From the NCBI RefSeq assembly GCF_041261445.1, contig NZ_JBGCCU010000032.1, positions 62,001 to 126,000 of the forward strand: DNA of 64,000 nucleotides. Reading direction: 5' to 3'. A program made the position numbers and the translations under genes. The notes under the pieces are model-generated. The model was not told the origin of the DNA. It was given only the letters and a program-made list of their open reading frames with translations, and searched no databases. The stretch comes from Catenulispora sp. EB89. Its GTDB lineage: Bacteria > Actinomycetota > Actinomycetes > Streptomycetales > Catenulisporaceae. Of this stretch, positions 34,061-61,537 are shown piece after piece; the first letter of the stretch is position 1, and the number at the start of each line of letters is the position of its first letter.

Positions 34061-34160
34061 GGCTCCGGTCTCGGCGGCGGTTGGACCTGCCGCCGGGACC
34101 CGAGCCCAGCTCGGGTGAAACGTGGGTGCGAGCGCGCGCCGGCGTGTGCAACGGTAAGAC

Positions 34161-34985: not shown

Positions 34986-34999
34986 CCGAGAATAATCAC

Positions 35000-35028
35000 T
35001 TTAACCACGGGTTTCTCGCCCCTACCGT
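35000..35028 (+). promoter_or_regulatory. Promoter of the DraRnl-type RNA ligase
   Basis: TTTAAC (35000-35005) and TACCGT (35023-35028) are 17 bp apart, 50 bp before the ATG, which has a GAGACGAGAAG ribosome-binding site. The ligase is thus probably transcribed separately from pnkp. Confidence 0.5.
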
Positions 35029-35077
35029 CGTCGTCGAGTCCATATCCGGACCCTGACCACCACGAGACGAGAAGCCC

Positions 35078-36223: not shown

Positions 36224-36391
36224 GCAGGTAACCGTGGGGAGCGCCCGGAGCGTCCCCTGCTGTCCGAGGTCCTGGACCCGGAGGAGCTGGCGCGCGAGAT
36301 CGCCGCCGACAAGGTCACCCGCCGCACGCACCCGACGCTGCCGCTGTCGATCTACTCCTACAGCCGCGCCTGCCAGTACGAGCAGGACTAG
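36216..36391 (+). pseudogene. Remnant of a second RNA ligase (T4 Rnl1-like N-terminus)
   Basis: The ATG at 36216 overlaps the upstream ligase stop (ATGAGTGA) in the style of this operon and encodes MSEQVTVG. The frame then shifts near the GTGGGGAG run, and one frame over reads LLSEVLDPEELAREI, then HPTLPLSIYSYSRACQYEQD to a TAG at 36389. The 'HP.LPL.IY.Y...C.Y' block resembles the start of bacterial T4 Rnl1-like ligases, where it is normally followed by W..VT..CRGL. The homology stops dead at the stop codon, where integrase-like DNA begins. Two lesions (frameshift and truncation) make it a pseudogene. Confidence 0.65.
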
Positions 36392-36630
36392 CTATCGAAC
36401 TTTGTCCGTTCGAAGGCACGCCCGAGTCTTCCTGCCACCGCGCTCACATATCTGCCTGCTGTGATGCGGAGATTGGAGTGCCCGGTGAGTTCGGAGACGT
36501 CGGTGAGATCGAGGTACCACTGGATAAATGCGGTGGCGCAGAGCACGTGTCGCAGCGTGTGACAGGTCCAACCACTTCCGGATCGCGGCGTTGCGCCGCC
36601 CGGTTGCCACGAACATCGGCTGTGCGATGG
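36388..36630 (-). pseudogene. Tyrosine recombinase 3'-end remnant
   Basis: The last about 63 codons on the minus strand read CHTLRHVLCATAFIQWYLDL, then ELTGHSNLRITAGRYVSAVAG and AFERTKFDS. They contain the HxxR, H and nucleophile Tyr of tyrosine recombinases and are closely similar to the intact integrase end at 40206-40450. Upstream, similarity continues only in another frame (AQPMFVATGRRNA), so there is a frameshift, and then it is lost. It is a relic of an earlier integration, or one end of a duplicated element. It abuts the broken ligase gene. Confidence 0.8.
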
Positions 36631-36720
36631 TGTGCGCGGTATCTGAACGCTGCGAACCAAGGGATGCCATCTAGATTTGCCGAATAATTTGAGGTGGCTA
36701 TCTGAGGTGAGTCTCTGGGG

Positions 36721-36748
36721 TATGATTGGCGTCAGCAGGATCCTGACG
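36721..36748 (+). promoter_or_regulatory. Promoter and dyad of the XRE-ImmA gene
   Basis: A good -10, TATGAT (36721-36726), is followed by the inverted repeat CGTCAG-N7-CTGACG (36730-36748) at the likely transcription start. Two TGAGGTG direct repeats lie about 12 bp apart just upstream (about 36690 and 36703). The arrangement suggests autoregulation by the XRE domain, with inactivation through the ImmA peptidase. Confidence 0.55.
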
Positions 36749-36766
36749 ATCGAGAGCGGGTGAGCT

Positions 36767-37855
36767 ATGAGCACGTCGTTGCCGGTGGCGAACCCGGCGA
36801 TGCTTGTACTTGCCCGCGAGTCGCGTGGCAAGCGACAGGGGCAGGTAGCCCAGGAGATGTCCGAAGTCTTGGGCGTCGCGGTGTCGCAAGGGTACGTCAG
36901 CCGCGCTGAGGCCGGGCGGTTGAACGTGGCCGAAGACCGCCTCGATGCGATGGCCAAGGTGCTTGGCTACCCGGTCGCGCTGCTGTGTTCCGACCCGGCT
37001 GCGGACGGCGTGGGCGTCGGGCTGGTCCACCATCGAAAGAAGGTGTCGCTGGGCGCCCCCGCTCTTCGGCAGATTCACTCCGAACTTGCCCTGGCACGCC
37101 GTCAGACCGCAGCCCTCGTCGCGGCGGTCGGGGGTCGGCACCACAGTTTCTTCCGCGCGGAACTCACCGAGATTGACTCGCCGGAGGAGAAAGCGATCGA
37201 ACTCCGTGACAGGTGGGGGGTGCCGCCCGGGCCGATTGCCAGCCTGGTCCGTGTCATTGAGGATGCTGGCGGGATTGTTCTCGTTCGCGATCTCGGCACC
37301 TCTGAGATCGATGCGGTCAGCCAATGGCCAGATGACGGGTTGCCGTTGTTCCTGCTGAGCTCGCGGGCGCCCGGCGACCGATTTCGGTTCAGCCTGGCGC
37401 ATGAACTAGGCCACTTGCTGCTTCACCGCGAGCCCGGGGGTACGCAGGACCAGGAAGGTCAGGCCGATCGTTTCGCCAGCGAGTTGCTGATGCCTGCCGG
37501 GGTCATCCGCGGGCAGCTATCGGGTGCGGACATCGCGCGTGTGACCGAACTGAAGCCTCGCTGGGGCGTGTCAATGGCAGCGCTCATCCGGCGGGGTCTT
37601 GACCTTGGCGCGCTCAGCGACTGGCAGTACCGCAACCTCATGATCGAGATGTCGGTCATGGGATACCGGGCTCAAGAGCCGGCCGCGATCGCCCCTGAAT
37701 CCCCGGCAGCGATCGCAGACATCGTGACCGGGCTCCTTGGGCGTGGACACACCAGGGCGCAGCTCGCCGCAATGGCTGGGCTGCTGCCTGCCGAGTTCGA
37801 GCAGCAATACCTCAAGCAATTGACGTCGATCCAAGAGCTTTCAATGCAATCCTGA
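36767..37855 (+). CDS. XRE-ImmA/IrrE fusion: HTH regulator with zinc metallopeptidase
   Basis: A 362-aa protein. Residues 10-75 are an XRE-type HTH (LARESRGKRQGQVAQEM, VSQGYVSRAEAGRLNV). Residues 150 to about 270 form an ImmA/IrrE-type peptidase with HELGH at residues 212-216 and the third ligand region ADRFASELLMP. Such fusions sense a signal and cleave a repressor or are themselves relieved from DNA. A helical C-terminus follows. GAGCGGGTGAG precedes the ATG. It is 9 nt upstream of a TGT-like gene, whose ribosome-binding site overlaps its stop, so the two are one operon. Confidence 0.9.
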   Translation: MSTSLPVANPAMLVLARESRGKRQGQVAQEMSEVLGVAVSQGYVSRAEAGRLNVAEDRLDAMAKVLGYPVALLCSDPAADGVGVGLVHHRKKVSLGAPALRQIHSELALARRQTAALVAAVGGRHHSFFRAELTEIDSPEEKAIELRDRWGVPPGPIASLVRVIEDAGGIVLVRDLGTSEIDAVSQWPDDGLPLFLLSSRAPGDRFRFSLAHELGHLLLHREPGGTQDQEGQADRFASELLMPAGVIRGQLSGADIARVTELKPRWGVSMAALIRRGLDLGALSDWQYRNLMIEMSVMGYRAQEPAAIAPESPAAIADIVTGLLGRGHTRAQLAAMAGLLPAEFEQQYLKQLTSIQELSMQS

Positions 37856-37864
37856 GGTGATGCA

Positions 37865-39046
37865 GTGACGCAGCCATCCGAACAGCCGCTCCGCAGGCGG
37901 CAGGTGACTGCCGCAGTGGGTGCGACGGGTAGGCCCACCGCTCTTGAGGTGCTTCGCGACCGCGGAATGCACCTTGCTAGACCGACCGGCACCCACAGCA
38001 AGGTCGATCCGGAATTCGATCCTCCGGCGAGCGGCGGGATTGCCCTGTGCGGGGAGAAGGCGAGGGCTGGCCTGCTAACTCTCAAGGCCTCGGCCGCCGT
38101 CCTCGTCCTGGCGGACACCGCGGTGTATGAGAGCTACATCGCTACGGCTCAGTCGCCATTGCGCGTCCCCGACATCAGCGACACGTTGTTCGCTGATGAC
38201 GATCCCCTCGACAGCCTGCTCAACGATCTAGTCGCCAGTCAGGCGCCGTTCGCCTTCACCCCGTCGGGGTATATAGCCCCTGGCGACTTCGCCGCCTTCA
38301 AAGCTCTGGTGAACGCCCTAGCGGGCATCGTTCGAGCCGATGTCGTCGCCGTGATCCCCATGGCGGTGACCTGGCTGCGTAAGGAGACTCTCGGCCAAGT
38401 CATTGCCTGCCTGAAGCAGATCCCGCACCCGATCGCGCTGGTGTTGGGCGGCCAGTACAACCCGACTGATCACTACGCCGACGTCGCGGGGAACCTTCGA
38501 CGCCTCTACCGGGAGATCCCCAACCTCGGCCTGTGGCGCACCGACGTGGTCTCGGGCCTGGACTGCATGGCGCACGGCGGTCTGTTTGCCGGGATCGGCA
38601 GCAGCAGCGCGCTGCGCCACTGCGTACCGCCAGGTGAGATCACCCAGCCGAGCGGCGTCCGCCTCAAGCCGTCGGTGTTCATGGCGGATCTTCTGAGCTA
38701 CGCCCGTGCCGACAAGCTCGCCCGGCTATACGCCAACGACGACCCCCCGCAGTGCTGGTGTACTGAGTGCCGCGGCCGCGGGCTTGACCGCTTCGACAGC
38801 TTCGACACCGAGGTGGCGCAAAGCGCTGCGGCTCACAACACCGCCGCTTGGATCGAGCTGTGGTCGGACATGTACGCGACGCCGTTACCGGAACGATCGA
38901 GAACGTGGACTTCAAGGGTCCAGAAGGCGGTTTCCGAGCACAGGCTCGAGAGCGAGAGGATCGAACAGCCGCAAGCGTTCGTGCCGTCGAAAACGCTCAC
39001 GCGGTTGGCCAAGCTCGCGGCGGCCGACTCGGCGGCCCAAGGCTAG
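37865..39046 (+). CDS. tRNA-guanine transglycosylase (TGT)-like protein
   Basis: A 393-aa protein that reads like a divergent TGT-superfamily barrel. A zinc-site-like CWCTEC (Cys297, 299, 302) with His324 matches the Cx Cx2C...H pattern at the C-terminus of TGT enzymes. Upstream the sequence LGLWRTDVVSGLDCMAHGGL followed by FAGIGSSSALRHCVPPGE resembles the late barrel strands. TGT enzymes exchange guanine for a 7-deazaguanine in tRNA, and the DpdA branch does so in DNA. The substrate here is unknown and no queuosine-precursor genes are near. The GTG start is supported by GAGGTGA at 37854. Confidence 0.65.
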   Translation: MTQPSEQPLRRRQVTAAVGATGRPTALEVLRDRGMHLARPTGTHSKVDPEFDPPASGGIALCGEKARAGLLTLKASAAVLVLADTAVYESYIATAQSPLRVPDISDTLFADDDPLDSLLNDLVASQAPFAFTPSGYIAPGDFAAFKALVNALAGIVRADVVAVIPMAVTWLRKETLGQVIACLKQIPHPIALVLGGQYNPTDHYADVAGNLRRLYREIPNLGLWRTDVVSGLDCMAHGGLFAGIGSSSALRHCVPPGEITQPSGVRLKPSVFMADLLSYARADKLARLYANDDPPQCWCTECRGRGLDRFDSFDTEVAQSAAAHNTAAWIELWSDMYATPLPERSRTWTSRVQKAVSEHRLESERIEQPQAFVPSKTLTRLAKLAAADSAAQG

Positions 39047-39756
39047 AGGTGCTGGGGCTGCACCTGCTGGTACACCTGCTCCACGAACTGCCAGCCTGCC
39101 GCGGTGTGGCGGCGGCGGATAAAAGGCCGCGGAGGGACGAGCACTTCTTGGTCATCGCCATCTGCTACCAGCACACCGATACCGTAGTAGCTGGCTTCCA
39201 GCACTAGGCTCTGCACGTCAGAAGGTGCCGATGTCAAGGACATCATGCGCATTGCGAAGGGCGCGAAGCGCCCCGCGTCCTGCAGACCCGATCGCCAGCC
39301 GCGTACGGGGACCAGCACCATATCGACCATCAGCGGCTGCACGGCGTGGCGTTGAACCAGGTGGCCGCTTCGCTCAAGCGCACCGGATGGGATCCTGCGC
39401 AGGGTTCTGCGCTCACGCGCAGTCAGCGACTCCACCGGTACCGGGAGACCTGACGGCAGTCCCAGCAGCATATCGAGTTGGTCTGAGGCGCACAGGCTGC
39501 CAAGGCCGGCATCAAGACGACGTGAATGCTCCTGCTGGTTCAGCCGATAAGCCACCTCCACACTTCGGCCCACCAGTTCTGCGGTTCGCCAACACGTCTC
39601 GGCGGGGACGAAATCGCGGATCGCAGAACGCGAGAGCGCCCCAAAGGTATGAAGGGACGAACCCGCCGCCGATCCAGTCATCGCGCACCTTGCCTCGTCT
39701 GCCCGCCATCTCCAACACCGATTAACCGCATCAGTGTCAATAGCTTCGAACTGCAT
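39043..39756 (-). CDS. Uncharacterised protein convergent with the TGT-like gene
   Basis: A 237-aa protein with no family I can name. It opens MQFEAIDTDAVNRCWRWR, has an Arg/Leu-rich centre (LTARERRTLRRIPSG) and ends with a beta-like LEASYYGIGVLVADGDDQEV and WQFVEQVYQQVQP. No membrane segment. It overlaps the TGT-like gene by 4 nt tail to tail. Its GC3 is lower than in the chromosome left of 36.4 kb, as for its neighbours. It may be part of the same mobile module. Confidence 0.6.
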   Translation of the reverse strand: MQFEAIDTDAVNRCWRWRADEARCAMTGSAAGSSLHTFGALSRSAIRDFVPAETCWRTAELVGRSVEVAYRLNQQEHSRRLDAGLGSLCASDQLDMLLGLPSGLPVPVESLTARERRTLRRIPSGALERSGHLVQRHAVQPLMVDMVLVPVRGWRSGLQDAGRFAPFAMRMMSLTSAPSDVQSLVLEASYYGIGVLVADGDDQEVLVPPRPFIRRRHTAAGWQFVEQVYQQVQPQHL

Positions 39757-40205
39757 GTTACAGGTAAACCAATTGATGGTTCTGAGTTGAGTGGCCCGCT
39801 CCAGGCTGCGAGGCGGGCAGGCTGAAGGCTATCGGCTGGCCCAGCCCTGAGACCAGAGGGGATGATCAGGTTGTAACCGAAAGAGTCGCTGGCGCGACCC
39901 GAGCGGCACAGCAGCAACCGGGCTACGCGGTGGCTTCGTTGACACAGATGAGGAGCGATCGGGAGGCAGGTACCACGCGTCCCGTTCGGCACCTGTGCAC
40001 CCGGTGTTGTCTTCAATCCTTCTGACGGATCTCAGTGCTGACGCCGAACGGGCCTCAGCAACAGCCATTGGTTCCACCGCGCGGCTCCGGTTGAGGGCTT
40101 CTGCCCCCGTCTGGCAGTCGGCAAGCCTGCGAGTAACAACTCCCTGCAAACCGTATACCCCAGCCCAAGTACTAACTATTGGACTGAGCTGATGTCGGTA
40201 CTTTG
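39757..40205. other. Intergenic, no supported gene
   Basis: Between the 237-aa gene start and the integrase stop I see no gene with good codon bias, no tRNA and no clear terminator. One open frame on the minus strand (39829-40209) lacks a ribosome-binding site and any recognisable feature. Confidence 0.5.
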
Positions 40206-41450
40206 TCATTCCATCGCCTGCTTGACTCGAGTTCGTTCGAAGGCTCTTTCAAGTGTCCCAGCCACAGCACCGACGTACCTGTCCGCTGTGATGCGGATGG
40301 TGGAGTGACCGGCGAGCTTGGAGACGTCGGTGAGGTCGAGCTTCCATTCGACGAGCGCAGTGGTGCAGAAGACGTGCCGGAGCGTGTGCCAAGTCCAACG
40401 ACTGCCTGACTCGGGAGTGCGCCATCCAGCCGCCGCAAAGGCTGGCTCTGCGATGGACGAGTAGAAGCTGCAGGCGTACATGTACTTGCCGCCTCTGGCG
40501 GGGAAGAGTCGCGCGTTGGGGTTGGAACCGGCGTCCCGTTCAGTCCTCGCTTCGTTGATACGACGGGCGAGCATGTCGGCGAGACGGTAGCCGTCCGGCG
40601 CAATCTCAGGGAACAGGGTCGTGCGGATGATGCCGTTCTTGGGTAGTTCGATGGTCTGCTTGCCATTGACTTCGATGACCTTCCGCAGGACCGTGATCGT
40701 GCGTCTTGTCGAATCCACATCGTCGGCCGAAAGCGCGAGCATTTCTCCGCGCCGGATACCTGAGTAGGCCGCGACGTACGGCATCAACTCACGCCACCAG
40801 CGGCATAGCCTCTTCTGCTGTGTGGCCAAGGCGAGCGCTGACACATCCCGATGGCGCGGTAGCGAGGCCATGTCGATGAAGTCGGTGCTCTCTCCGCAAA
40901 TCCGCGCTTTCAGGGTCGGGCGAGGGCGATCGCCGGCCTGCCAGTGGACGACGGCCGGCAATGGCTCAGTGAGAAACCCCATGCTGCCGCCGATCTTGAT
41001 CAATCCTGAGATGAACGTCCGCAGCCGGGCGCCTGATGTGGCAGTATTTGCGCGGTTGACGATCTGCTGCATATGCCACGTTTCGATGGCTCCGCACGGT
41101 ACATCTCCGATGACCTCGAGTGTCTTCCTGCCGAATCGTTCCTGATCTGCTCGATAGGAGCTTGACCACTGCCTGTCAGCCGGTAGCCGGTCTGGAGAAA
41201 GGTAGTAAGCGATGAGGTCGGCGCCTGATGCTGTCTCGAAGCGGTTGAGGTCGGGGAGGCCTGCGAGCCGGCGCTTGACTGGATCGAGCTTGCGTGCCAG
41301 GCCGTCCTCGTCCGCGGCCTGACGGTACTTACGCTTACCGTCGCGATCGTAGAAAGCGGCGCGCCACGGGTCGCCAGGCTGTGCTGGGGGATAGACAGTG
41401 ATGCCATCGAGGGTCTTAATGATCCCACTGACGCTTCGGATGCCGCTCAC
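40206..41450 (-). CDS. Tyrosine recombinase (phage-type integrase)
   Basis: A 414-aa site-specific recombinase. The N-terminal arm reads ITVYPPAQPGDPWRAAFYDRDGKRKYRQ-type sequence, the core-binding domain is in the middle, and the catalytic set is Arg in YSGIRRGEMLAL, HxxR in WHTLRHVF, His in LAGHSTIRI and the nucleophile Tyr in ADRYVGAV (about Tyr392). The GTG at 41450 is chosen because GGGAGG (41462-41457) sits 6 nt upstream and the length then matches the family; upstream in-frame starts exist at 41669 and 41744. The start overlaps the stop of a small Cys-rich ORF (GTGA). It mobilises the island and is intact in all key residues. Confidence 0.9.
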   Translation of the reverse strand: MSGIRSVSGIIKTLDGITVYPPAQPGDPWRAAFYDRDGKRKYRQAADEDGLARKLDPVKRRLAGLPDLNRFETASGADLIAYYLSPDRLPADRQWSSSYRADQERFGRKTLEVIGDVPCGAIETWHMQQIVNRANTATSGARLRTFISGLIKIGGSMGFLTEPLPAVVHWQAGDRPRPTLKARICGESTDFIDMASLPRHRDVSALALATQQKRLCRWWRELMPYVAAYSGIRRGEMLALSADDVDSTRRTITVLRKVIEVNGKQTIELPKNGIIRTTLFPEIAPDGYRLADMLARRINEARTERDAGSNPNARLFPARGGKYMYACSFYSSIAEPAFAAAGWRTPESGSRWTWHTLRHVFCTTALVEWKLDLTDVSKLAGHSTIRITADRYVGAVAGTLERAFERTRVKQAME

Positions 41451-41701
41451 TGTGCGCCTCCCGCCGACGATGTCGAGCACTTCTGGACGTGTGGGAGCGC
41501 GCCGACGAACCGGGGCAACCGCTTGAGCTTCGTCAGGACCTGCTGCGGAGTATTCACGTAGGGGACGGTCCACAGACACCTGCAGTCCCGCAAGGGGCAC
41601 ATGGTCTGACGAACGGCGGTCGCGCTGAGACTGTCGCGGCAGCCAAAGCGGTTGCAGCGTGGTGTCCATGTCCCGGATGCCCTTCGGTCGTGCATTCGCA
41701 T
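41447..41701 (-). CDS. Small Cys-rich ORF coupled to the integrase (excisionase position)
   Basis: 84 codons on the minus strand end in TGA overlapping the integrase GTG (GTGA), the usual place for an excisionase. The peptide carries two CX4C pairs (CNRFGC and CPLRDC) that could bind zinc, then LWTVPYVNTPQQVLTKL and a C-terminal LPRFVGALPHVQKC. It does not match the HTH_17 excisionase pattern well. The second half has good GC3, and a start at Met34 (41602) is also possible. It could be a novel directionality factor or a relic. Confidence 0.4.
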   Translation of the reverse strand: MRMHDRRASGTWTPRCNRFGCRDSLSATAVRQTMCPLRDCRCLWTVPYVNTPQQVLTKLKRLPRFVGALPHVQKCSTSSAGGAQ

Positions 41702-41786
41702 CTAAACGGCGACGTGGGAGCCGCGTCGGATCGATTATGCACAACTGCTCATGGTTCGCTGATCTTCGCGCCGATTCAGTCGAGTC

Positions 41787-42053
41787 GTGTCATCTGCCGG
41801 CGAACCACCCGACCCGCGACTGCTGGCGCTCGGCCTGCGCATCCGGAAGCTTCGCGAGGCACGGCAGTTGAGTTTGGAGGAGCTCGCCCACCTCAGCGAC
41901 CTGAGTTTTCGTGGACTGATCTATATCGAGCACGGACGTCGTAATCCGGGCGTGCTGACGCTCCTAAAGATCGCCGACGGGTTAGGTGTGTTACCCCAGG
42001 ACCTGTTCGACGATGAAGCTCGCGAATGCCAGAACGAGGGCGGGTCCTCCTAG
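41787..42053 (+). CDS. XRE-family transcriptional regulator, small
   Basis: An 88-aa HTH protein, almost all domain: LGLRIRKLREARQLSLEELA, then SDLSFRGLIYIEHGRRNPG and LLKIADGLGVLPQDLF. It is typical of phage/plasmid repressors of about 80 aa. The GTG start is divergent from the integrase and its coupled ORF. It probably controls integrase or excision promoters. Confidence 0.85.
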   Translation: MSSAGEPPDPRLLALGLRIRKLREARQLSLEELAHLSDLSFRGLIYIEHGRRNPGVLTLLKIADGLGVLPQDLFDDEARECQNEGGSS

Positions 42054-42215
42054 CGGATCGTCGGTCTCCCCAATGAGGGCGTTTCGCAGTCCCGTGCTTC
42101 CTGGCAGTCCGTATCCGCGCACGGGAGGGGTATCTGACATGACCGCCATCACCACCGCTATGAATACCGCCGTGCTGGACGGCGCGCCCGTGGCTGTTCA
42201 GGTGCCCGCTGGGTC

Positions 42216-42530: not shown

Positions 42531-42572
42531 TAAAAGGCATCGCCAGCGCCGGGCGGCAAGCTAAGATTGGCT

Positions 42573-44630: not shown

Positions 44631-44666
44631 GCGCTTCTGGGACATTGATCCCTGATCCGTGCAGGT

Positions 44667-44700
44667 GCGGTACCGGGCGACCGAAGCGGTCCGGTACCGC
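44667..44700 (+). terminator. Hairpin terminator after the HEPN-motif gene
   Basis: GCGGTACCGG (44667-44676) pairs perfectly with CCGGTACCGC (44691-44700), with a 14-nt loop, 36 bp after the stop codon. Confidence 0.75.
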
Positions 44701-53059: not shown

Positions 53060-54646
53060 ATGGCTGAGAACGGGCTCGCCGACGGTGCGGAGGCCGGTGC
53101 CGACCTTGATCTGGACGGCCTGGAGACCGCGACCCGGTTGCGGCTGTTCGGCTTCGTGCGGCGTGACGACCAGCTGTTGTATCTGTGGGTGCTCCGGGCG
53201 ATGGACCGGTTGCGGTTCGCGCACGTCTCGCAGGCGCACACCGATGACGTCGCGACGGCGCTCGCCGAGTTGGCTTCCCAGCACCAGGACGCGCCCGCCG
53301 AGGCCGAGAACCTGCGTCAGCGCCTGGACAATCTGGCCGAGGACGGTGTGTTGCACCGGCTGGAGGATCCGGCGCGGGCCGGGAAGCTGTCGGCCTACCG
53401 GAATCGCCAGTCGGTGTACCAGTTCAGCGAGCTGGGGTATTTGGCGTTTCGCGCGGTCAGCGGTGTGTTGGCTGCACGTATCGAGGACGCGAATCTGTCC
53501 CGGCTGGTGTTCTCCGACATTCTGCGTGATTTCGAGGGGCTGGCTCGAGCCAACCGGGATGCCGATGCCGATGAGATCGTGCGGCGTCTGACGAGCCTGG
53601 ACCGGGTCGTGGAGGACATGGCGCAGCGCACTGCGCGTTTCCATCTGACCTTGGGCGATATCACTCGCACCACCGACACCTCTCCTGAGGTGTTCCTGCG
53701 GCACAAGGACGCGTTGCTGAGCCACTTGCACAACTTTGTCGTCGAGCTGGAGCGGTACCTGCCCCGCCTCACATCGGCGGTCGCGGCGGTGGAGCAGACC
53801 GGCGTGGCAACGCTGCTCGACCGTGCGGCCATGGCCGATGAGCGTCCGTTGCTGGGGCATGACCGAATCCGTGAGGACTGGGCGCGGCGCTGGGCCGCGC
53901 TTCGAGCCTGGTTCGCGATTCCGGACGCGGGACAGTCTGCGGCCGATGCTGTGGTGGCGGCACCGCCTCGGGCCGTCGAGGTCCGCGACACCGCTCACAT
54001 GGCGGTCTCTGCGGTGATCGCCTTGCTGCGGCAGATAACCGATGCTCAGCGCAGCGGTGTAAACCGCAGCACACAGCTCAAGCACCTGGCCGCATGGGTG
54101 GTGGACACGCCAGATGAGGAAGCAGCGCACGCTCTGATGTCGGCGGCGTTCAACCTCCGCTCGGCGCGGCATTTCGGCACGGTGCATGAGGACGAGGAGC
54201 TGATCTCTTCTCGCAGCACGTGGTGGGACGCTCCAGGGGTCGAGATCTCGATGACCTTGTTCGCCAAGGGCAAGGCTCCCACACCGGGCGTTCCCAAACC
54301 GGTCGTCGACAAGCGCGGCAGCCGGCAGCACCTGCGCTCCCAGCAGGCCGCCGCGCGCGCCGCCGAGCGTGATTCGGCGGCGCGGTTGCTGGATGCTGGG
54401 GTTCATGGCCGCGTTCTGGACGCGGCCGAGCTGCGAGTGCTCCTCAAGCTGCTGACCCGGGCCTTGGAATCCCGTTCGGTGGTGGCCGGCCGCGTCACAG
54501 CGTCGGGAAGTAACGATGTGTTGACCATGCGGCTCGTGCCATCACCCGGCGGCAGTGCGGTTCAGACCGAACACGGTGTGCTTCACCTGCCGGGCTACGC
54601 ACTCGAACTCGCCCCACTGCGCCGACGCGCTAAAGCAGGGCTCTGA
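53060..54646 (+). CDS. jetA: Wadjet subunit JetA (DUF2397/TIGR02677)
   Basis: A 528-aa protein of the TIGR02677/DUF2397 family, the kleisin-like subunit of this Wadjet branch. It opens with RLRLFGFVRRDDQLLYLWVL, then the winged region YRNRQSVYQFSELGYLAFRAV, the helical arm and LGDITRTTDTSPEVFLRHKD, all typical. It is predicted to bridge the SMC heads of JetC in a complex with JetB. GGGAGGTGA supports the ATG. Its stop overlaps jetB by 1 nt (TGATG). It is the first of four coupled genes. Confidence 0.93.
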   Translation: MAENGLADGAEAGADLDLDGLETATRLRLFGFVRRDDQLLYLWVLRAMDRLRFAHVSQAHTDDVATALAELASQHQDAPAEAENLRQRLDNLAEDGVLHRLEDPARAGKLSAYRNRQSVYQFSELGYLAFRAVSGVLAARIEDANLSRLVFSDILRDFEGLARANRDADADEIVRRLTSLDRVVEDMAQRTARFHLTLGDITRTTDTSPEVFLRHKDALLSHLHNFVVELERYLPRLTSAVAAVEQTGVATLLDRAAMADERPLLGHDRIREDWARRWAALRAWFAIPDAGQSAADAVVAAPPRAVEVRDTAHMAVSAVIALLRQITDAQRSGVNRSTQLKHLAAWVVDTPDEEAAHALMSAAFNLRSARHFGTVHEDEELISSRSTWWDAPGVEISMTLFAKGKAPTPGVPKPVVDKRGSRQHLRSQQAAARAAERDSAARLLDAGVHGRVLDAAELRVLLKLLTRALESRSVVAGRVTASGSNDVLTMRLVPSPGGSAVQTEHGVLHLPGYALELAPLRRRAKAGL

Positions 54647-56046
54647 TGGCCGAGCCCATGGCCGCCGAGACGGTGGCCCCCAGCGATCTGGAATCCTACC
54701 AGCACGCCGTACGCCTGGTCCTCACCAACGATGTGATCACCGCGTCGCGGCCGACGGCCGCCGCGTTGAAGTCGGTGCTGGCCTGGGCTGACCGCATGGC
54801 CAAGGACTTCCAGGAGCTGCTGGGCTACCGGCTGGAGGCGACCGCGCACCATGTCCGCCTGATCCGGCGACTGGACCTGCTGGACGGCACACAGCACAGT
54901 CTGTTCGCGGCCAAGAGCGGGCGGTCATTCGATCGCCGCCGCCTGGCCTATCTGTGCCTGGTGCTCGCTGCCTTCAACCGTTCCCGCACTGAGATCGACC
55001 TGGTGGATCTCGTGACCGTACTGGGGCCGAGCGCGAATGCCATTGACGGGCTCGGGTTCGAGGCCACCGTCACCGAACACAAGCGCGCGGTGGTGGATGT
55101 CGTGGACTGGCTGGTGGAGCGCGGCGCGCTGCGCCTGTCGGACGGGGACGCGGAAAGCTGGGCCAAGGACTCCGAGCACGGCGATGCGCTGTATGACATC
55201 GATCACGACATCTGCACCACGCTGTTCCGCCCGCTGCGCCCGCTGCAGTTCGTCGACAGCGCCCGCGGCCTGCTGGACGTGGAGCAGACCGAAGCCGCCC
55301 GCAGGTCCGTGCAGCGGGAAGCCGCAGCCCGTCGCGCCCGGCGGCTTCTGGTGGAGCACCCCGTCGTCTATTTCGGGCAGGTCGACGAAGCGACGGGTGC
55401 TGCTCTGCGCTCGGCCGAACTGGCCGAGAACCTGGCACGGATGACCGGGCTGAGTGTGGAGCGCAGGGCTGAGGGCGTCGCGTTGGTGGACGGCTCCGGC
55501 CGGTTCACCGACCGCAGGTTCCCGGGCCGCGGCGGTGCGGTCGCCAGAGCGGCGGGGCTGATCCTGGCCAAGATCGCAGACCTGCTGGAGGATCCGGACA
55601 GCGGGCCAGGAGTGCGCCGGATGACCGTCCCGACCGCCGCCGAGGTCCTCGACGATCTGATCGCCCGGATCGACGCGGGTCGGCACACAACGGATTCGCT
55701 GCCGGTGTCGGCTTCGGCCGCGGTATCCGGTGGCGAGCGCACACCGGCCTGGGAGGCGCCGTTCATCGAGACCGCGGTGCTGGAGTCCATGATGCGCGAG
55801 CTGTACGAGGAGTTCGGCGCCGGATCCTTCACCGAGCAGTGGAAGTACGACACGTCCGGTTTGTTGACCGAAGCCGTTGTCCTGCTGACCGATCTGGGGC
55901 TGGTACACCGGGTGCCCGGAGGCGTCCTGGTGTTGCCGGCCGCCGCGCGCTACCGGAACATCAAAGCCGCGGTGCCGCGGCGCGACTGGCGTGACGACCA
56001 GCTCGCGCTGGACCTGTCGGACCTGTTGACGGAAGGACAGATGTGA
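54646..56046 (+). CDS. jetB: Wadjet subunit JetB (DUF2398/TIGR02678)
   Basis: A 466-aa protein of the TIGR02678/DUF2398 family, the KITE-like winged-helix subunit. Landmarks are FQELLGYRLEATAHHVRLIR near residue 50, RRLAYLCLVLAAFNRSRTEI near residue 100, and the C-terminal VLESMMRELYEEFGAGSF block and LVHRVPGGVLVLPAAARYRN. It should dimerise on JetA and contact JetC. The start overlaps jetA by 1 nt and the stop overlaps jetC by 4 nt (GTGA). Confidence 0.92.
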   Translation: MAEPMAAETVAPSDLESYQHAVRLVLTNDVITASRPTAAALKSVLAWADRMAKDFQELLGYRLEATAHHVRLIRRLDLLDGTQHSLFAAKSGRSFDRRRLAYLCLVLAAFNRSRTEIDLVDLVTVLGPSANAIDGLGFEATVTEHKRAVVDVVDWLVERGALRLSDGDAESWAKDSEHGDALYDIDHDICTTLFRPLRPLQFVDSARGLLDVEQTEAARRSVQREAAARRARRLLVEHPVVYFGQVDEATGAALRSAELAENLARMTGLSVERRAEGVALVDGSGRFTDRRFPGRGGAVARAAGLILAKIADLLEDPDSGPGVRRMTVPTAAEVLDDLIARIDAGRHTTDSLPVSASAAVSGGERTPAWEAPFIETAVLESMMRELYEEFGAGSFTEQWKYDTSGLLTEAVVLLTDLGLVHRVPGGVLVLPAAARYRNIKAAVPRRDWRDDQLALDLSDLLTEGQM

Positions 56047-59000
56047 GCAGGTTCAAGCCGACCAGGGCCGGGATCGTCAACCTGTGGGACTACATCGACG
56101 AGGAGTTCGTCTTCGCCGACGGCCGCCTGGCGCTGCGCGGGCACAACGGCTCGGGCAAGACCAAGGCTCTGGAGGTACTGTTCCCGTTCGTCTTGGACGG
56201 CTCACTGAGCGCGCGCCGTCTGGACCCGTTCAGCGGCGAGAACCGCACCATGAAATCCAACCTCCTGTATCGCGGCCAGGACGCCGCCTACGGCTACGTG
56301 TGGATGGAGTTCGCGCACGACGGCGAACCGGCCGAGGTCGTCACGCTGATCATCGGGTTGAGTGGGCACAAACACCGGGAACAGGTCACGCCCGCGTACT
56401 ACGTGACCGGTAAGCGGATCGGGGTCGACATCGGGCTGCTGTCGGCCGATTCGCGTCCGCTGACCGCCAACCAGCTGTCCGCCAAGCTGGATGTGTCGGA
56501 GTGCTTCAAGGACCGGCGCGGCGACTACCGGGACGCGGTGGACGCCAGGCTTTTCGGGCTCGGGACCGACCGCTACATCCAACTGCTGGATCTGCTGCTA
56601 TCTCTGCGCCGTCCGCTGCTGGCCAAAGACCTGGACCCGGTGAAGGTCTCCAACACCTTGTCCGCCGGGCTCAGCCCCGTGGACGAGGAACTGGTCGAGC
56701 AGGCTGCCCGGGACTTCGACAACCTGGCGGCGGTCAAGCGCCGTTTCGACGACCTGAGCACCGCTTCCGGAGCCGTCGAGGCGTTTCTGGCCCAGTACAC
56801 CGCCTATGTCAGGGCCCATACCAAGTCACAGCTCGACCGCTTCGACCATTTGATCGGTGACGCGGCCGGGCACGCCGGCGCCGTGCGGGATGCCGCCGCC
56901 GAAGTCGACCGCGCTACCAGGTCCGAGGCGCGGGCGGAGCAGACCCGCGCTCGTTGCGACCGACGCCGCCGCGAACTGGATGCTGAGCGTGGTGCGCTGG
57001 TCAACAGCCAGGCATACAAGGACCACGAACGGCTCGAGCAGGAACGTGAGAAGGTCGAGAAGGCCAGCAGACAGCTCGACAAGGACCGCGCACAGCTGGC
57101 CAAGGATCGGCGGAATATCAATGATCTGATCGGCGAGGCCGACGGGTTGCAGGACCGGGCTGGACAGCTGGACCGGGCCGGCGAGCAGCACCGCCGTGCC
57201 ATCCTCGCAGCGGCCGACGCCGCGGCCCTGGAATGGGATCCGGCTGTCCTGGAGGCTCAGGACCACGATCGGGATACGGTGGTCACCGCTCTGGTCGCGT
57301 CCCGGCGCGACGACATCGAGCACGTGCGGACCGAACTAGGACGAGTTGATGAGGCCGAGAAGGAACGGTCCCGTGCTGACAAAGACCTGGGCAAGGCGCG
57401 CGAAAAAGCAGAGCGTCTGGGCGCGGTGGTCACCGAGACGGCTGGTCGGCTGACCACCGCCCGCACCGCACTGTCGGAGGCGTTGAACGCCTGGACACTG
57501 CGCTGGGCCGACGCCGACGTCCTTACTGACGGGCTGCCGGAAGCACTGCATACGGCGGCGGCCCGGATCGGCGAACCTGACGCGGCATCACTGGAGCAGA
57601 CCTACACCGAGGCCACCGCCGGGCGTCGCGACGAGCTGATCACACGGCGCGAAACCTGCAAACGGAACGTGTCCGATCTCGAAACCGTGATCCAGGGACT
57701 CAAGTCCGAGCGCACGGCTGTCGCCGAGCAGCGCGATGAGGCACCGCCTGGCAACGACCTGCGTCCCGCCGACCGCGCCGATCGGCCCGGCGCACCGCTG
57801 TGGCAACTGGTCCGCTTCGCCGACCACGTGCACCCCGAGCAGGCCGCCGCTATCGAAGGCGCACTGTACGGCTCCGGAGCCCTGACCGCCTGGCTGCACC
57901 CGGACGCGGACCTGACCCGGTCGGCCGTGGCAGCCGCCGAAGCCGATGGCTATCTGATCCCGCTGCCCCAAGATCATCGGCCGGCCGACGCGACCCTCGC
58001 CGACTTCCTCGAACCCGAGCACGAGCAGAACCTCGTCGCGCCGGAAACGATTCGGGCCATCCTGGCGTCCATCCAGGTCACCGATACTCCGCCGAAAGCA
58101 GGATTGGCAGCGGTCTGGATCACCACCTCGGCGCAATACGGCCATGGCGTCCAGACCGGTGCTCGGCCCAAGACCGAGCCGGAATTCATCGGAGCCACTG
58201 CCCGCGCAGCGCGCCGCCGCGCCCGCCTGGCCGAAATCGACGCGCGGATGGCCGAACTCGGTGCCACGCATGAAGGGCTGCAAGCTGTACTCGACAAGGT
58301 GCTGGAGGCGATCGAGAACATCGAGAACGCCGCCAAGCTGCCTCCCACCGGCGCGGTGCTGACCGCGGTCGGGGATCTAGCCACCGCCGCGGCGCTGCAC
58401 CGTGATGCCGAGGGCGTATTACGCGACGCCAGCGCGGCACTGGACGTGGCCACCGCCGAGCTGTCCGCACGCCAACGCACCCTCCGCCAGGTAGCTGGAA
58501 CGCGGAACATGCCCCACACCACCGACGAGGTGGACGCAGTCGATCAGGCTGTCACCGACGTCCAGCTGACCATCGAAATGCTCGCGCGCGATCAGAGCGA
58601 GGCGCGACAGGTGAACACTGACCTGACGACTCGGCGGGCCCGCATCGTAGAACTCGAAGGAGACTACCTGGAAGCAGCCACAGAGCTGGCTGAGCAGGAA
58701 ACCGAGTTCGAAGCGGCCAAGGCGGCATGGCAGACGGCCAAGGGCAGCATCGACAAGGAATACGAGGAGATCCTCGCGACCATCACCGGCCTCGATGCTG
58801 AACTCGGTACGGTCCGTACCGAGCTGGCCAGGGCCGAGAACCTGAAGAACACCGAACACGACAACCGTATCGGCGCCACCCGCGACCTGGACAACCGCCG
58901 CACGACCTTGCTGGCCGCGATGGAGGCGCTCAGTGAGGGAGCTGACGCCTTCGCACCCTTCGCCCACCCAGACCTGCGCGACCTGCTCGGCGTTACCGAA

Positions 59001-60296
59001 AGCGCGCACTGGCCCTCGTCGGGCCGATGGATTCCCGCCTCCGAGGCGGCCGAACGGGTCGAAACATTGCTGGCCGACCCCGAGCCGGAGACGGACCCCG
59101 ACACCGCGGTCCGCCGGATCATGCCGGCCGAATCCCAAACCCTGCTACACGCCTACCGCCAAGCCACCTCGGGCGGCCGCGCAGTCGTCCAAGCCACCCT
59201 GGACACCGCCGGCGACCGACTCACCAGCGCCTACCAGGAATTCGACAGGGTGCTGCGTGGCCTGGAGGACGGATACGAGGTGACCCTCGGCCTCGGCGTG
59301 CCGGCCATGGTCGACGTCACCGCCGATGACGGCCGCCAACCAGTCGCCCGCTTCGCCCAGCGCATCGCCGAGGAAGCCCAGACCCAGGGAGTGCTGCTGG
59401 AGGAGCGCGAGCACGAGGTACTGGAGGACACCCTGCTCACCGCGCTGGCCCAGCAGATCCACCACCGTGTGCTGGCCGCCAGGGACCTGGTCAAAGAGAT
59501 GGACGCCGACACCCGCGCCAAGCCGATGTCCTCTGGGATGGCGATCGGCATCAGCTGGGTGCGCTCCGACAAGATCAGCGAACTGCAGAACGCTGTAGCC
59601 ACCCAGCTCCAGCACAACACTGCCGCCCTCGGTGCCGACGGCCTGGCCCAGCTCCGCCAGCGGCTGCGTGAGATGATCCGTGACCACAAAGCTCGCAATC
59701 CGCGCGACACCTACCGCGAAACCCTCGCCACGGTCCTGGACTACCGCGACTGGTTCATGTTCGCCATCCAGCTCATCCACCCCGGCGGCCGCACCGAACA
59801 GCTCACCCGCAAACGCCACAGTTCCATGTCCGGTGGCGAGAAATCCGCCGCCATCCACCTACCGCTATTCGCCGCCGCCAACGCCATTTACTCTTCAGCT
59901 AAACCCACCTGCCCACGCATGGTCGCCCTCGATGAGGCGTTCGCCGGCATCGACGGCAACTTCATGCCCGACCTGCTGGGCCTGACTACCAAGTTCGACC
60001 TCGACTTGTTCATGACCGGCCACGAGCTGTGGATCACCACCCCGGCCGTGCCGATGATCGCCCACTACGACATGATGCACGACGAGCACAGCCAGACCGT
60101 GTCCTCGCTGTTGATTCTGTGGGACGGCGAGCAACTCATCGACGCCGGCGCCGGCTTCGGCGGCAACGACGATATCGCCGCCGAACTGCTCGGCTTCACC
60201 CCCTCCCGCCGCGAACCGATCACTGGGACCGACGACGGGCTGCTACCGCCGGCCTCCGAGGGCGACGGCGAGCCCGAAACCGGTGATGACCTGTGA
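56043..60296 (+). CDS. jetC: Wadjet SMC-like ATPase JetC (TIGR02680)
   Basis: A 1417-aa MukB-like SMC protein. The N-terminal head has FKPTRAGIVNLWDYIDEEF and Walker A GHNGSGKTKAL near residue 40. Coiled coils cover about residues 290-470 and 720-1000, and a hinge region lies in between (PLWQLVRFADHV, AIEGALYGSGAL). The C-terminal head holds the signature SMSGGEKSAAIHLPL, Walker B MVALDEAFAGID and the D-loop. It extrudes DNA loops and directs JetD to small circular plasmids. The GTG start overlaps jetB by 4 nt and the stop overlaps jetD by 4 nt. Confidence 0.95.
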   Translation: MSRFKPTRAGIVNLWDYIDEEFVFADGRLALRGHNGSGKTKALEVLFPFVLDGSLSARRLDPFSGENRTMKSNLLYRGQDAAYGYVWMEFAHDGEPAEVVTLIIGLSGHKHREQVTPAYYVTGKRIGVDIGLLSADSRPLTANQLSAKLDVSECFKDRRGDYRDAVDARLFGLGTDRYIQLLDLLLSLRRPLLAKDLDPVKVSNTLSAGLSPVDEELVEQAARDFDNLAAVKRRFDDLSTASGAVEAFLAQYTAYVRAHTKSQLDRFDHLIGDAAGHAGAVRDAAAEVDRATRSEARAEQTRARCDRRRRELDAERGALVNSQAYKDHERLEQEREKVEKASRQLDKDRAQLAKDRRNINDLIGEADGLQDRAGQLDRAGEQHRRAILAAADAAALEWDPAVLEAQDHDRDTVVTALVASRRDDIEHVRTELGRVDEAEKERSRADKDLGKAREKAERLGAVVTETAGRLTTARTALSEALNAWTLRWADADVLTDGLPEALHTAAARIGEPDAASLEQTYTEATAGRRDELITRRETCKRNVSDLETVIQGLKSERTAVAEQRDEAPPGNDLRPADRADRPGAPLWQLVRFADHVHPEQAAAIEGALYGSGALTAWLHPDADLTRSAVAAAEADGYLIPLPQDHRPADATLADFLEPEHEQNLVAPETIRAILASIQVTDTPPKAGLAAVWITTSAQYGHGVQTGARPKTEPEFIGATARAARRRARLAEIDARMAELGATHEGLQAVLDKVLEAIENIENAAKLPPTGAVLTAVGDLATAAALHRDAEGVLRDASAALDVATAELSARQRTLRQVAGTRNMPHTTDEVDAVDQAVTDVQLTIEMLARDQSEARQVNTDLTTRRARIVELEGDYLEAATELAEQETEFEAAKAAWQTAKGSIDKEYEEILATITGLDAELGTVRTELARAENLKNTEHDNRIGATRDLDNRRTTLLAAMEALSEGADAFAPFAHPDLRDLLGVTESAHWPSSGRWIPASEAAERVETLLADPEPETDPDTAVRRIMPAESQTLLHAYRQATSGGRAVVQATLDTAGDRLTSAYQEFDRVLRGLEDGYEVTLGLGVPAMVDVTADDGRQPVARFAQRIAEEAQTQGVLLEEREHEVLEDTLLTALAQQIHHRVLAARDLVKEMDADTRAKPMSSGMAIGISWVRSDKISELQNAVATQLQHNTAALGADGLAQLRQRLREMIRDHKARNPRDTYRETLATVLDYRDWFMFAIQLIHPGGRTEQLTRKRHSSMSGGEKSAAIHLPLFAAANAIYSSAKPTCPRMVALDEAFAGIDGNFMPDLLGLTTKFDLDLFMTGHELWITTPAVPMIAHYDMMHDEHSQTVSSLLILWDGEQLIDAGAGFGGNDDIAAELLGFTPSRREPITGTDDGLLPPASEGDGEPETGDDL

Positions 60297-61537
60297 GCGG
60301 ACTGGAGGCGTTCCGCGGCCCGGAGTACCAGCGGCTGTTTGCCGCGGTACGCCGCTCGCTGGAGCGCACCGGGTCGGATCTGACCGGACAGGTCAGCGTC
60401 GGCTCACTCGACGAGGCCGAACGCAAAGCCCTGATCGGCTTGACCGGGCAATACCGCCCAGCGGGCGTCGCACGTATCACGGTGAGCCTGTCCCGTCTGG
60501 ACGAGGTCGTCCATGCTGCGACCGGTCTGCCCCTGCCCGAGGCAGTGGCGGCCATCGTCGGCAAGCCCCTGCGTCACAAGCCAGACGAACGCGCACGCGA
60601 CGAAACCGCCCGTGCCGCCGCACGCTCCCTGGCCGAGGCCAGCCCTCTCTACCCGGCCTGCTCGTGGTTTCAGCAGTGGCTCGACGCGCTCGCACCGGCG
60701 ATCACCAAGATGGTGAACCAGGGCACCACCGCCCGCCTGGCAGCAGCGGTCCGAGTCCTCGAGGCCATCGAACAACGCCGCGAACAAAACCTCCCGCTCC
60801 TGCTGCCGGCACTCGCAGAACAAGCCACCGGCGACACCAAAGCGCTCGGGCGCGGCAAACCGACCGCGACCCTGGTGCTTCGCGCCTTGGCTCTGCGAAC
60901 CGGAACGCCGATGCCCACCAGGGCGGAAGGTACTAGAGAGCTGTGGGACCGCTGCGGGGTGGTCGTCGACGATCTGGCCAGCCGCGTCCTCGTCCTCAAC
61001 CTGCCCGCCACCGGCGACGGACTCGGTGAATGGCTCAGTGGTGCGGCTCGCTACGGCACCCCGTTCCAGATCACTCTTCATCAGCTCACGGTCCACCCGA
61101 TGCGCGTGGCAGGCGCTGACGTGTTCGTCTGCGAGAACCCTGCGGTGCTACGCCAGGCCGCCGCCGAACTCGGACCGGACGCCCCACCAATGCTGTGCAC
61201 CGAAGGCAGGCCCTCGGCGGCATTCCACCGCATGGCCCACCAGCTGACGGACGCCGGCGCCCGACTGCGCTATCACGGCGACTACGACTGGGACGGCATC
61301 GACATCGCCAACCAGATCATCACCCGACACCACGCCGAACCCTGGCACATGACCGAAGACCAGTACCGGAAACACGCTGACGTCACCGACGACGCCATCC
61401 GACTCCGGGGCAACCCGAAGCGGACACCGTGGGCGCCGGGTTTGGCCGATGCGATGGCGGAGCTCGGCGTGGCCGTCTATGAGGAGGCGGTGGCCGCGAG
61501 GCTGATCGAGGCCCTGAAACGGGCTGATCGCAAGTAG
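60293..61537 (+). CDS. jetD: Wadjet nuclease JetD (DUF3323/DUF2399, TIGR02679)
   Basis: A 414-aa protein of the TIGR02679 family. The N-terminal DUF3323 part (residues 1 to about 200) contains ITVSLSRLDEVVHAATGLPL and the SPLYPACSWFQQWL block. The C-terminal TOPRIM-like part (DUF2399) shows CENPAVLRQAAAELG (acidic Glu), then RYHGDYDWDGIDIANQII, whose Asp-x-Asp is the metal site. JetD cleaves the plasmid once JetABC has extruded it. The GTG overlaps jetC by 4 nt. All four genes are intact. Confidence 0.94.
   Translation: MSGLEAFRGPEYQRLFAAVRRSLERTGSDLTGQVSVGSLDEAERKALIGLTGQYRPAGVARITVSLSRLDEVVHAATGLPLPEAVAAIVGKPLRHKPDERARDETARAAARSLAEASPLYPACSWFQQWLDALAPAITKMVNQGTTARLAAAVRVLEAIEQRREQNLPLLLPALAEQATGDTKALGRGKPTATLVLRALALRTGTPMPTRAEGTRELWDRCGVVVDDLASRVLVLNLPATGDGLGEWLSGAARYGTPFQITLHQLTVHPMRVAGADVFVCENPAVLRQAAAELGPDAPPMLCTEGRPSAAFHRMAHQLTDAGARLRYHGDYDWDGIDIANQIITRHHAEPWHMTEDQYRKHADVTDDAIRLRGNPKRTPWAPGLADAMAELGVAVYEEAVAARLIEALKRADRK

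What the first reader, a model, noticed from the sequence alone, without database searches (positions are those of the whole stretch)
36767..39756. Candidate new system: XRE-ImmA regulator in operon with a TGT-like enzyme, plus a convergent unknown
Seen: HELGH peptidase fused to an HTH, 9 nt before a gene with a CXCX2C...H zinc-site pattern and late TGT-like strands, and a convergent 237-aa gene overlapping by 4 nt. Known: ImmA-type peptidases switch phage and ICE regulators; TGT-superfamily DpdA inserts 7-deazaguanines in DNA as protection. Inference: an inducible base-exchange or nucleobase-sensing module on a mobile element, with no local precursor genes.
Basis: partly seen in the sequence, partly recalled or inferred. 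Interest (0 to 1): 0.75.

Follow-up and report, generated by a model that had tools for sequence, protein, structure and literature searches.

The report
Mobile gene trio around altered TGT-fold protein
A conserved, mobile set of three bacterial genes, carried among anti-virus defence genes, centres on a protein shaped like a tRNA-base-swapping enzyme that seems to have lost the residue that does the swapping, so it probably does something else with nucleic acid.

Summary
In detail: P1 (XRE+ImmA, HELGH), P2 (393 aa) and convergent P3 (237 aa) lie where stated. P2 matches no family library, but its model (pLDDT 86) is a TGT barrel with the zinc motif (archaeosine TGT, Z 17.7 over 300 residues). 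The nucleophile Asp position appears to be Gly245, invariant in both P2 alignments; the second catalytic Asp (Asp84) is kept. The genome has no PF01702 TGT and no convincing QueC. The fold guess holds; base exchange is unlikely.

The trio is real: of 53 distinct P2 loci, P3 is convergent in 51 and P1 present in 42, with mostly unrelated flanks. P3 resembles a PD-(D/E)XK nuclease without the ExK residues, with an inserted winged helix. A GGAATAWT site lies before P1 in 22 of 25 P1 loci examined and in 0 of 10 without P1. The window copy is cargo of an integrative element whose contig also carries Wadjet; a sister element has PIN-like ORFs in that slot.

Best reading (inferred, 0.45): an ImmA/XRE-controlled defence or toxin-antitoxin-like module of RosmerTA type, whose effector is a re-tooled TGT-fold protein working with P3. 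Its chemistry is untested.

The parts
36767..37855 (+). P1: XRE HTH (16-72) + ImmA/IrrE M78 peptidase; likely autoregulator/antitoxin
   Evidence: Pfam HTH_3 3.1e-7, Peptidase_M78 1.3e-15; PADLOC RmrA 1.3e-56; HExxH and E239 invariant in the 12 rows aligned
37865..39046 (+). P2: TGT-fold (beta/alpha)8 barrel with Cys3His zinc motif; nucleophile Asp position apparently replaced by Gly245, Asp84 kept
   Evidence: model pLDDT 86.4, pTM 0.87; VIA Z 17.7 to 1iq8 over 300 residues, 3.6 A; Foldseek 7ovo_C E 1.5e-4; alignments
39043..39756 (-). P3: PD-(D/E)XK-nuclease-like fold with inserted winged helix (about residues 86-143), no recognisable ExK catalytic residues
   Evidence: model pLDDT 85.7, pTM 0.78; VIA Z 8.3 to 3dnx, 7.8 to PaqCI, 6.4 to a Pyrococcus repair nuclease, modest scores; present in 51 of 53 distinct P2 loci
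36681..36694 (+). degenerate form (CGAATAAT) of the GGAATAWT element found upstream of P1 in relatives
   Evidence: exact element in 22 of 25 P1 loci examined, 0 of 10 P1-less loci; window has one mismatch
36730..36748 (.). inverted repeat CGTCAG-N7-CTGACG upstream of P1, candidate operator of this copy
   Evidence: not found in the other 24 upstream regions scanned there
36373..36388 (.). left attachment core (CCAGTACGAGCAGnAC) inside a split RNA-ligase-like gene
   Evidence: siblings without the element and contig C48 carrying the other half
36404..36630 (-). remnant of a tyrosine recombinase 3' end (73% identical to the intact one nearby)
40206..41744 (-). tyrosine recombinase of the element
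   Evidence: PF00589 3.9e-11; backbone shared with G005 at 91.9%
53060..61537 (+). Wadjet (JetABCD, type-2 models of PADLOC) downstream on the same contig, context only
   Evidence: JetA 5e-150, JetB 1.4e-157, JetC 0, JetD 1.6e-120; Pfam

Best explanation
A mobile, ImmA/XRE-controlled defence or toxin-antitoxin-like module of RosmerTA type. P1 binds an upstream operator and keeps the P1-P2 operon low; its peptidase is the likely release switch. P2 is the effector: a TGT-fold, zinc-binding protein that binds nucleic acid (probably tRNA) but has lost the nucleophile that makes base exchange possible, so it acts by another reaction or by binding alone. P3, a nuclease-like DNA-binding protein without recognisable catalytic residues, works with P2 as target finder, sensor or restraint. 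Shown by sequence or computation: genes, arrangement, conservation, predicted folds, mobility, defence context, conserved upstream element. Inferred: toxicity, nucleic-acid target, operator function, roles of P1 and P3.
For: P1 matches 14 RmrA profiles, best 1.3e-56; RmrA is an HTH+ImmA antitoxin paired with varied toxins (PMC10440598, passages read). P1-P2 looks like an operon: 33 of the 36 P1-bearing loci have -4 to +11 nt between them, taking the ATG/GTG nearest to the P1 stop. P3 is convergent in 51 of 53 distinct P2 loci while neighbours mostly differ. Patchy: 15 of 293 order genomes, own included, and 0 of 13 other genomes of its family. In one draw P2 and P3 each occur in 14 genomes, 13 shared. 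The window copy lies in an element on a contig with Wadjet, in a slot where a sister element has PIN-like ORFs (my reading). Neighbours elsewhere include BrxC, PglZ, Type I RM, GajB (240 PADLOC families from 126 neighbours against 69 from 132 control proteins). Upstream element in 22 of 25 P1 loci examined, 0 of 10 P1-less.
Against: No toxicity or phage protection has been tested. P1 is absent from 11 of 53 loci (one of them, L037, has a distant HTH+M78 gene instead), several with intact P2 and P3, so P1 is not an obligatory antitoxin; L032 has P2 with neither partner. P2 matches no PADLOC profile; its relatives only DpdA, weakly, in 1 of 33 (that the library holds RmrT models is assumed). P3 also lives without P2 on 16 Streptomyces plasmid records. 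P3's fold match is modest (Z 8.3; no Foldseek hit at E <= 0.001). The PADLOC tally counts families, not proteins; the control also hits some (HamB, GajB, mad3) and comes from only six genomes. No relative of P2 was found in viral contigs nor of P2 or P3 in phage records.
Confidence: 0.45

Rival explanations
1. One reading: P2 is an active base-exchange enzyme that puts a modified base into tRNA or DNA as protection, switched on by P1.
For: TGT fold, zinc motif and the Asp102-equivalent kept; one of 33 family members hits the PADLOC DpdA profile at 0.004; DpdA-type TGTs are parts of Dpd defence, and TGT homologues are reported in BREX-related systems (PMC12839542, passages).
Against: Nucleophile position apparently Gly in every aligned member; no strong QueC in 11 of 14 module genomes (of the 3 with one, two have a separate dpdA beside it); no gene other than P1, P3 and a winged-helix gene is widely shared beside the module; no PF01702 match in 33 members.
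Confidence: 0.12
2. P2 is catalytically dead, like the QTRT2 subunit of eukaryotic TGT, and the trio is a nucleobase- or tRNA-sensing regulatory module rather than a killing or defence module.
For: QTRT2 is a TGT-fold subunit whose catalytic residues are replaced (PMC6165067, passages); P1 and P3 both look like DNA-binding proteins; a conserved upstream element.
Against: QTRT2 has Glu and Cys at the two positions, whereas P2 keeps Asp84, Asp227, Arg225, Arg251 and His252 with few exceptions, which suggests retained chemistry; defence context and mobility fit defence better.
Confidence: 0.22
3. The true toxin-antitoxin pair is P2 with P3, with P1 an optional transcriptional controller.
For: P3 is the steadier partner (51 of 53 against 42 of 53); in 13 loci P3 has its own likely operon behind a winged-helix-like gene.
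Against: Tail-to-tail convergent genes are unusual for a pair (recalled); the Arthrobacter plasmid has P1-P2 without P3 and L032 has P2 alone.
Confidence: 0.13
4. An element-maintenance or transfer-control module of integrative elements, not defence.
For: In the window it lies beside the element's integrase; ImmA is an antirepressor that allows integrase expression in a Bacillus conjugative transposon (PMC10440598, passages).
Against: The window's integrase gene has no relative among the genes called in the other 48 loci, and the sister element lacks the module but keeps the integrase region.
Confidence: 0.08

Closest known systems
RosmerTA (RmrA antitoxin with varied RmrT toxins)
   Same: HTH+ImmA protein of the RmrA type in operon with a partner gene; found among defence genes
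   Different: partner is a TGT-fold protein matching no PADLOC toxin profile; a third convergent gene; P1 missing in some loci; toxicity untested
DpdA of the 7-deazaguanine DNA-modification (Dpd) system
   Same: TGT-superfamily protein with zinc motif in a defence setting; Arg six residues after the catalytic position
   Different: DpdA has Asp (D254 in alignment A8) where P2 has Gly245; no dpd or preQ0 genes were seen at the locus
TGT homologues of BREX-related (BRC) systems
   Same: TGT-superfamily protein in an actual or proposed defence locus (PMC12839542, passages)
   Different: there with HerA/FtsK, PglZ and GNAT genes and proposed to modify DNA; no such set is fixed beside P2. Sequences not compared
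QTRT2, non-catalytic subunit of eukaryotic TGT
   Same: TGT fold and zinc site with altered catalytic positions
   Different: QTRT2 has Glu and Cys at the two positions (PMC6165067), P2 has Gly and Asp; no relation beyond the fold shown
Bacterial and archaeal TGT (Tgt, archaeosine TGT)
   Same: fold over about 300 residues, zinc motif, Asp102 equivalent
   Different: 8-12% identity in the structural alignments; nucleophile apparently missing; no Pfam match
PD-(D/E)XK proteins (SPO1766/3dnx, PaqCI, EndoMS, XisH) for P3
   Same: predicted core fold
   Different: no acidic/lysine pair on the ExK strand; winged helix inserted; score modest

Membership tests
TGT superfamily (fold level) | (beta/alpha)8 barrel of TGT type | tested here: met
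   Z 17.7 to 1iq8, 300 residues at 3.6 A; Foldseek E 1.5e-4 to 7ovo_C; on a predicted model
TGT superfamily (fold level) | Cys3-His zinc motif (CxCx2C...H) | tested here: met
   C297, C299, C302, H324 invariant in A1 (17 rows); in A6 (33 rows) three invariant, C299 nearly; zinc itself not tested
TGT superfamily (fold level) | match to PF01702 | tested here: not met
   0 of 33 A6 members at E <= 1
Base-exchanging TGT/DpdA enzyme | nucleophile Asp (Z. mobilis Asp280) | tested here: not met
   position maps to invariant Gly245, with Arg251 at +6 as the Asp+6 Arg in A8 and A9; mapping by weak alignments to DpdA and by spacing, not superposition; alignments to TGT did not place it
Base-exchanging TGT/DpdA enzyme | second catalytic Asp (Asp102) | tested here: met
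   Asp84 aligned to the LTDSGG Asp; invariant in A6, nearly so in A1
Base-exchanging TGT/DpdA enzyme | 7-deazaguanine supply in the genome (QueC) | tested here: not met
   own genome only a weak hit, 3.6e-4; strong hit in 3 of 14 module genomes and 22 of 273 others; uptake from outside not excluded
RosmerTA | RmrA: HTH + ImmA protein | tested here: met
   14 RmrA profiles, best 1.3e-56
RosmerTA | partner matching a known RmrT | tested here: inconclusive
   no PADLOC match for P2 but DpdA in 1 of 33 relatives; I did not verify which RmrT models the library holds, and RmrTs are diverse
RosmerTA | toxicity neutralised by RmrA; phage protection | not testable with these tools
   needs experiment
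PD-(D/E)XK nuclease (P3) | core fold | tested here: inconclusive
   Z 8.3 best, nuclease-type rows dominate the top; no Foldseek hit at E <= 0.001
PD-(D/E)XK nuclease (P3) | catalytic D...(D/E)xK | tested here: not met
   no conserved acidic-Lys pair on strand 142-151 in A7 (27 rows); the assignment of that strand is inferred

The most novel reading that the evidence does not exclude
P2 is the first TGT-fold toxin or defence effector that does not exchange bases: with Gly in the nucleophile place and the acid/base Asp kept, it could use water in place of a new base and so excise bases (an N-glycosidase) from tRNA or phage nucleic acid, aimed or restrained by the dead-nuclease protein P3 and unleashed through ImmA.
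Probability: 0.15. Interest if true: 0.88.

Novelty: new variant of a known kind. Interest (0 to 1): 0.6.

Why it matters
It would add the TGT fold, known to me only for base exchange or proposed base modification and as the inactive QTRT2 subunit, to the effectors carried on mobile defence islands under ImmA control. It is directly testable: three short genes, with clear residue predictions (Asp84, Asp227, Arg251, His252, Gly245), in common Streptomyces. Searches of the open-access library for TGT or DpdA with Streptomyces, ImmA, toxin-antitoxin or defence-island terms showed no title or abstract start that describes this trio; I read passages of three papers only, and most subscription papers and all preprints are outside that library.

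Tried and rejected
Pfam, NCBIfam and PADLOC with the window P2 and P3 gave nothing at E <= 1, PHROGs only E 0.3 and 0.26. Sequence search of solved structures gave nothing for P2 (single and two profiles) or for P3 (one profile). The first genome-contig scan with P2 alone found no relative. Viral contigs were scanned with P2 only: none. Phage records: none for P2 or P3. Foldseek of P2 against viral models: no hit at E <= 0.001. Rfam: nothing over threshold in 34000-44000; tRNA genes: none in the window.

Considered and rejected. Asp233 of the window P2 as nucleophile: it resembles the TGT GxDMFDC string and is near what the alignments to TGT pick, but it lies in a predicted helix (228-236) and is Gly in many relatives. 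QueC tally at face value (275 of 287): almost all are weak hits near the cut-off; I counted only the 25 genomes at E <= 3.1e-19. P2 hits G523 and G606 (2.8e-4, 3.4e-4) were dropped because tblastn found no P2 there (L038, L039). P3 as a partner that always needs P2: rejected, since 16 plasmid records hold P3 without P2. The genes upstream of P3 in four plasmid regions compared are not the winged-helix family seen before P3 in 13 loci.

Rows left out: alignment A6 holds the window and 32 of the 42 loci, A7 the window and 26 of 42 (near-duplicates and broken copies left out by hand); A3 holds 12 P1 proteins; 25 P1 loci were examined for the upstream element, and L037 was in neither the P1 nor the P1-less set.
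Full report
What is there. Between 36767 and 39756 lie three genes: P1 (XRE HTH + M78/ImmA peptidase, 362 aa), P2 (393 aa, 9 nt behind P1) and P3 (237 aa, convergent, 4-nt overlap). P1 is closest to RmrA profiles of PADLOC (1.3e-56). It also scores 84.8 bits to NCBIfam's spr1629 antitoxin against a cut-off of 335, so it is related but not an equivalog. P2 and P3 match nothing at E <= 1 in Pfam, NCBIfam or PADLOC, and only at E 0.3 and 0.26 in PHROGs.

How widespread. P2 has one match in its own family of 14 genomes, the window itself. It occurs in 15 of 293 genomes of the order, own included, and in 5 of 396 of the phylum, own included; two of these are weak and were dropped. A scan of species-representative genomes gave 42 loci from 110 candidate stretches, in Streptomyces, Streptacidiphilus, Nocardia, Crossiella, Nocardiopsis, Saccharothrix, Allosalinactinospora and Kibdelosporangium. 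An Arthrobacter plasmid has P1-P2.

Arrangement. In one search, 62 sequences were searched; 60 hold P2. P3 is found in 51 (not L002, L032), always on the strand opposite to P2 and beyond its end. P1 is found in 42; L037 has in its place a more distant HTH+M78 gene. In 33 of the 36 P1-bearing loci, P2 begins -4 to +11 nt from the stop of P1, taking the ATG/GTG nearest that stop. Three copies are visibly broken: L080 and L035 have frame breaks, L081 a short P2. Neighbouring genes are mostly unshared; the only other family found in more than five of the 49 loci compared is a ~109-aa winged-helix-like gene upstream of P3 in 13 (a MarR_2 match at E 0.0098 in one of two scanned). In a draw of 287 genomes P3 occurs in 14. 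The P2 list has 14 genomes in the same handle range, 13 shared; P2 alone is in G042, P3 alone in G080, where it starts 131 bases from a contig end. The coupling is one-sided: 16 Streptomyces plasmid records hold P3 while no plasmid but the Arthrobacter one matches P2. Of five such regions looked at, three have a DUF6247 gene and an 86-aa gene behind P3 (RelE-like is my reading of the one in L177).

P2. AlphaFold2 with 33 window and the search for related loci sequences gave pLDDT 86.4, pTM 0.87. Foldseek's three best solved structures are TGTs (7ovo_C 1.5e-4; 1iq8 9.6e-4; 6rkq 1.5e-3). VIA-align gives Z 17.7 to archaeosine TGT over 300 residues at 3.6 A, and TGTs fill the 50 rows shown. The zinc motif is conserved. 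In TGT, Asp280 attacks the ribose and Asp102 deprotonates the incoming base (PMC6165067, passages read). Profile alignment puts P2 Asp84 on the LTDSGG aspartate. Against DpdA, P2 G245-SSSAL-R251 lies on DpdA D254-STSAF-R260 (E 0.017, E 0.12; also the local DpdA alignment; these share sequences and are not independent). TGT has the same Asp-to-Arg spacing (D251-R257). Gly245 and Arg251 are invariant in both P2 alignments and Gly245 ends the last predicted barrel strand, 241-245. Against this, the alignments to TGT do not reproduce it in the middle region, so I treat the loss of the nucleophile as well supported but not proven. Arg225, Asp227 and His252 are invariant in A6; in A1 Arg225 is invariant and the other two nearly so.

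P3. The model (pLDDT 85.7) has no Foldseek hit at E <= 0.001. VIA-align's top rows are mostly PD-(D/E)XK proteins: 3dnx Z 8.3 (125 residues, 4.2 A), PaqCI 7.8, AF2093 6.6, a Pyrococcus repair nuclease 6.4, EndoMS 6.2, XisH 5.7, BsaWI 5.3; winged-helix proteins match residues about 86-143. That 3dnx, AF2093, YaeQ and XisH belong to this superfamily is recalled. The strand where ExK would sit reads VDMVLVPVR and no acidic-lysine pair is conserved in 27 sequences.

No deazaguanine support. The own genome has no PF01702 TGT (14 of 14 controls ring). Strong QueC hits occur in 25 of 287 genomes: 3 of the 14 module genomes (G042, G138, G261) and 22 of 273 others; G138 and G261 have a separate dpdA within 3 kb of QueC.

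Regulation. GGAATA[AT]T lies 50-116 nt upstream of the P1 start in 22 of the 25 P1 loci examined, as the only such site in each 11-17 kb locus; the window (one mismatch), L053 and L056 lack it, and 0 of 10 P1-less loci have it anywhere. Several of the 25 are close relatives (L047/L048/L050, L072/L076, L062/L079). In those 22 loci it is therefore not in front of P3.

Mobility and context. All 10 genus genomes, own included, have the upstream gene 35078-36223, which I read as an RNA ligase. Of five siblings compared, four (G006, G008, G012, G013) continue across the site collinearly with each other, and a second ligase-like frame is open over it for 403 residues in G008 and G012. In the window and in G005 the sequence diverges at the same CAGTACGAGCAG point. 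The other half of the window's second ligase-like gene is on contig C48, beginning at a copy of this core. G005 shares the element backbone with the window (40193-44811 at 91.9%, 45288-46772 at 94.5%, the end of the stretch fetched) but has about 1.6 kb with two PIN-like ORFs (my reading) where the window has the trio. The same contig carries JetABCD of Wadjet at 53060-61537, an LmuB-matching AAA_27/SMC-type protein with a metallophosphatase gene, and a PDC-S39 protein. How far the element reaches to the right is not proven, since the contig ends, so that Wadjet lies inside the element is likely but inferred. Among 126 neighbour proteins of 33 non-redundant loci, 240 PADLOC families are hit at E <= 1e-8 (BrxC, PglZ, Type I RM, GajB, mad2 among the 25 shown), against 69 for 132 proteins from 33 random stretches of six genomes of the order (mostly HamB and GajB helicases among the 25 shown). 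This counts families, not genes, and is indicative only.

Interpretation. RosmerTA systems pair an HTH+ImmA antitoxin with differing toxins and several protect against phage; PIN-like partners are predicted in that network (PMC10440598, passages). The trio shares the regulator type, operon layout and context, so I read it as an ImmA-controlled defence or TA-like module with a TGT-fold effector. The absence of P1 from 11 of 53 loci means P1 is more a controller than an essential antitoxin; P3 may restrain or aim P2. Base exchange is disfavoured. Whether P2 excises bases, does other chemistry, or only binds is open.

Noticed in passing
53060-61537: Complete Wadjet (JetABCD) gene set on the same contig and probably the same element as the trio.
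   Followed up: partly
42567-50064: DUF7380/DUF4209 protein (PDC-S39 hit) and an AAA_27 protein (LmuB hit) next to a metallophosphatase gene: possible Lamassu- or SbcCD-like defence genes.
   Followed up: partly
35078-36388: Two RNA-ligase-like genes in a row (my reading); the second is split by the element in the window and in G005, and uninterrupted at the site in G006, G008, G012 and G013.
   Followed up: yes
L135 (G005), slot matching window 36400-40192: Different cargo in the same element slot: two divergent PIN-like ORFs (my reading).
   Followed up: partly
L175-L179 (Streptomyces linear plasmids): P3 homologues without P2; in three of five regions followed by a DUF6247 gene and a short, RelE-like gene.
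   Followed up: partly
L036:7010-8872: Deaminase-domain protein (dCMP_cyt_deam_1 1.1e-13) beside the module, reminiscent of AvcD (recalled), with what I read as Type I restriction genes nearby.
   Followed up: no
L068:2927-6730 and L034:5175-8819: Large related proteins beside the module in two loci; a NACHT NTPase match (PF05729 2.4e-9) in the L068 one.
   Followed up: no
L022:8714-9403: About 690 bp between the otherwise abutting ends of P3 and P2, content not examined.
   Followed up: no
L049:5240-6488: A second XRE-ImmA gene (Peptidase_M78 5.8e-15) on the other strand just upstream of the module.
   Followed up: no
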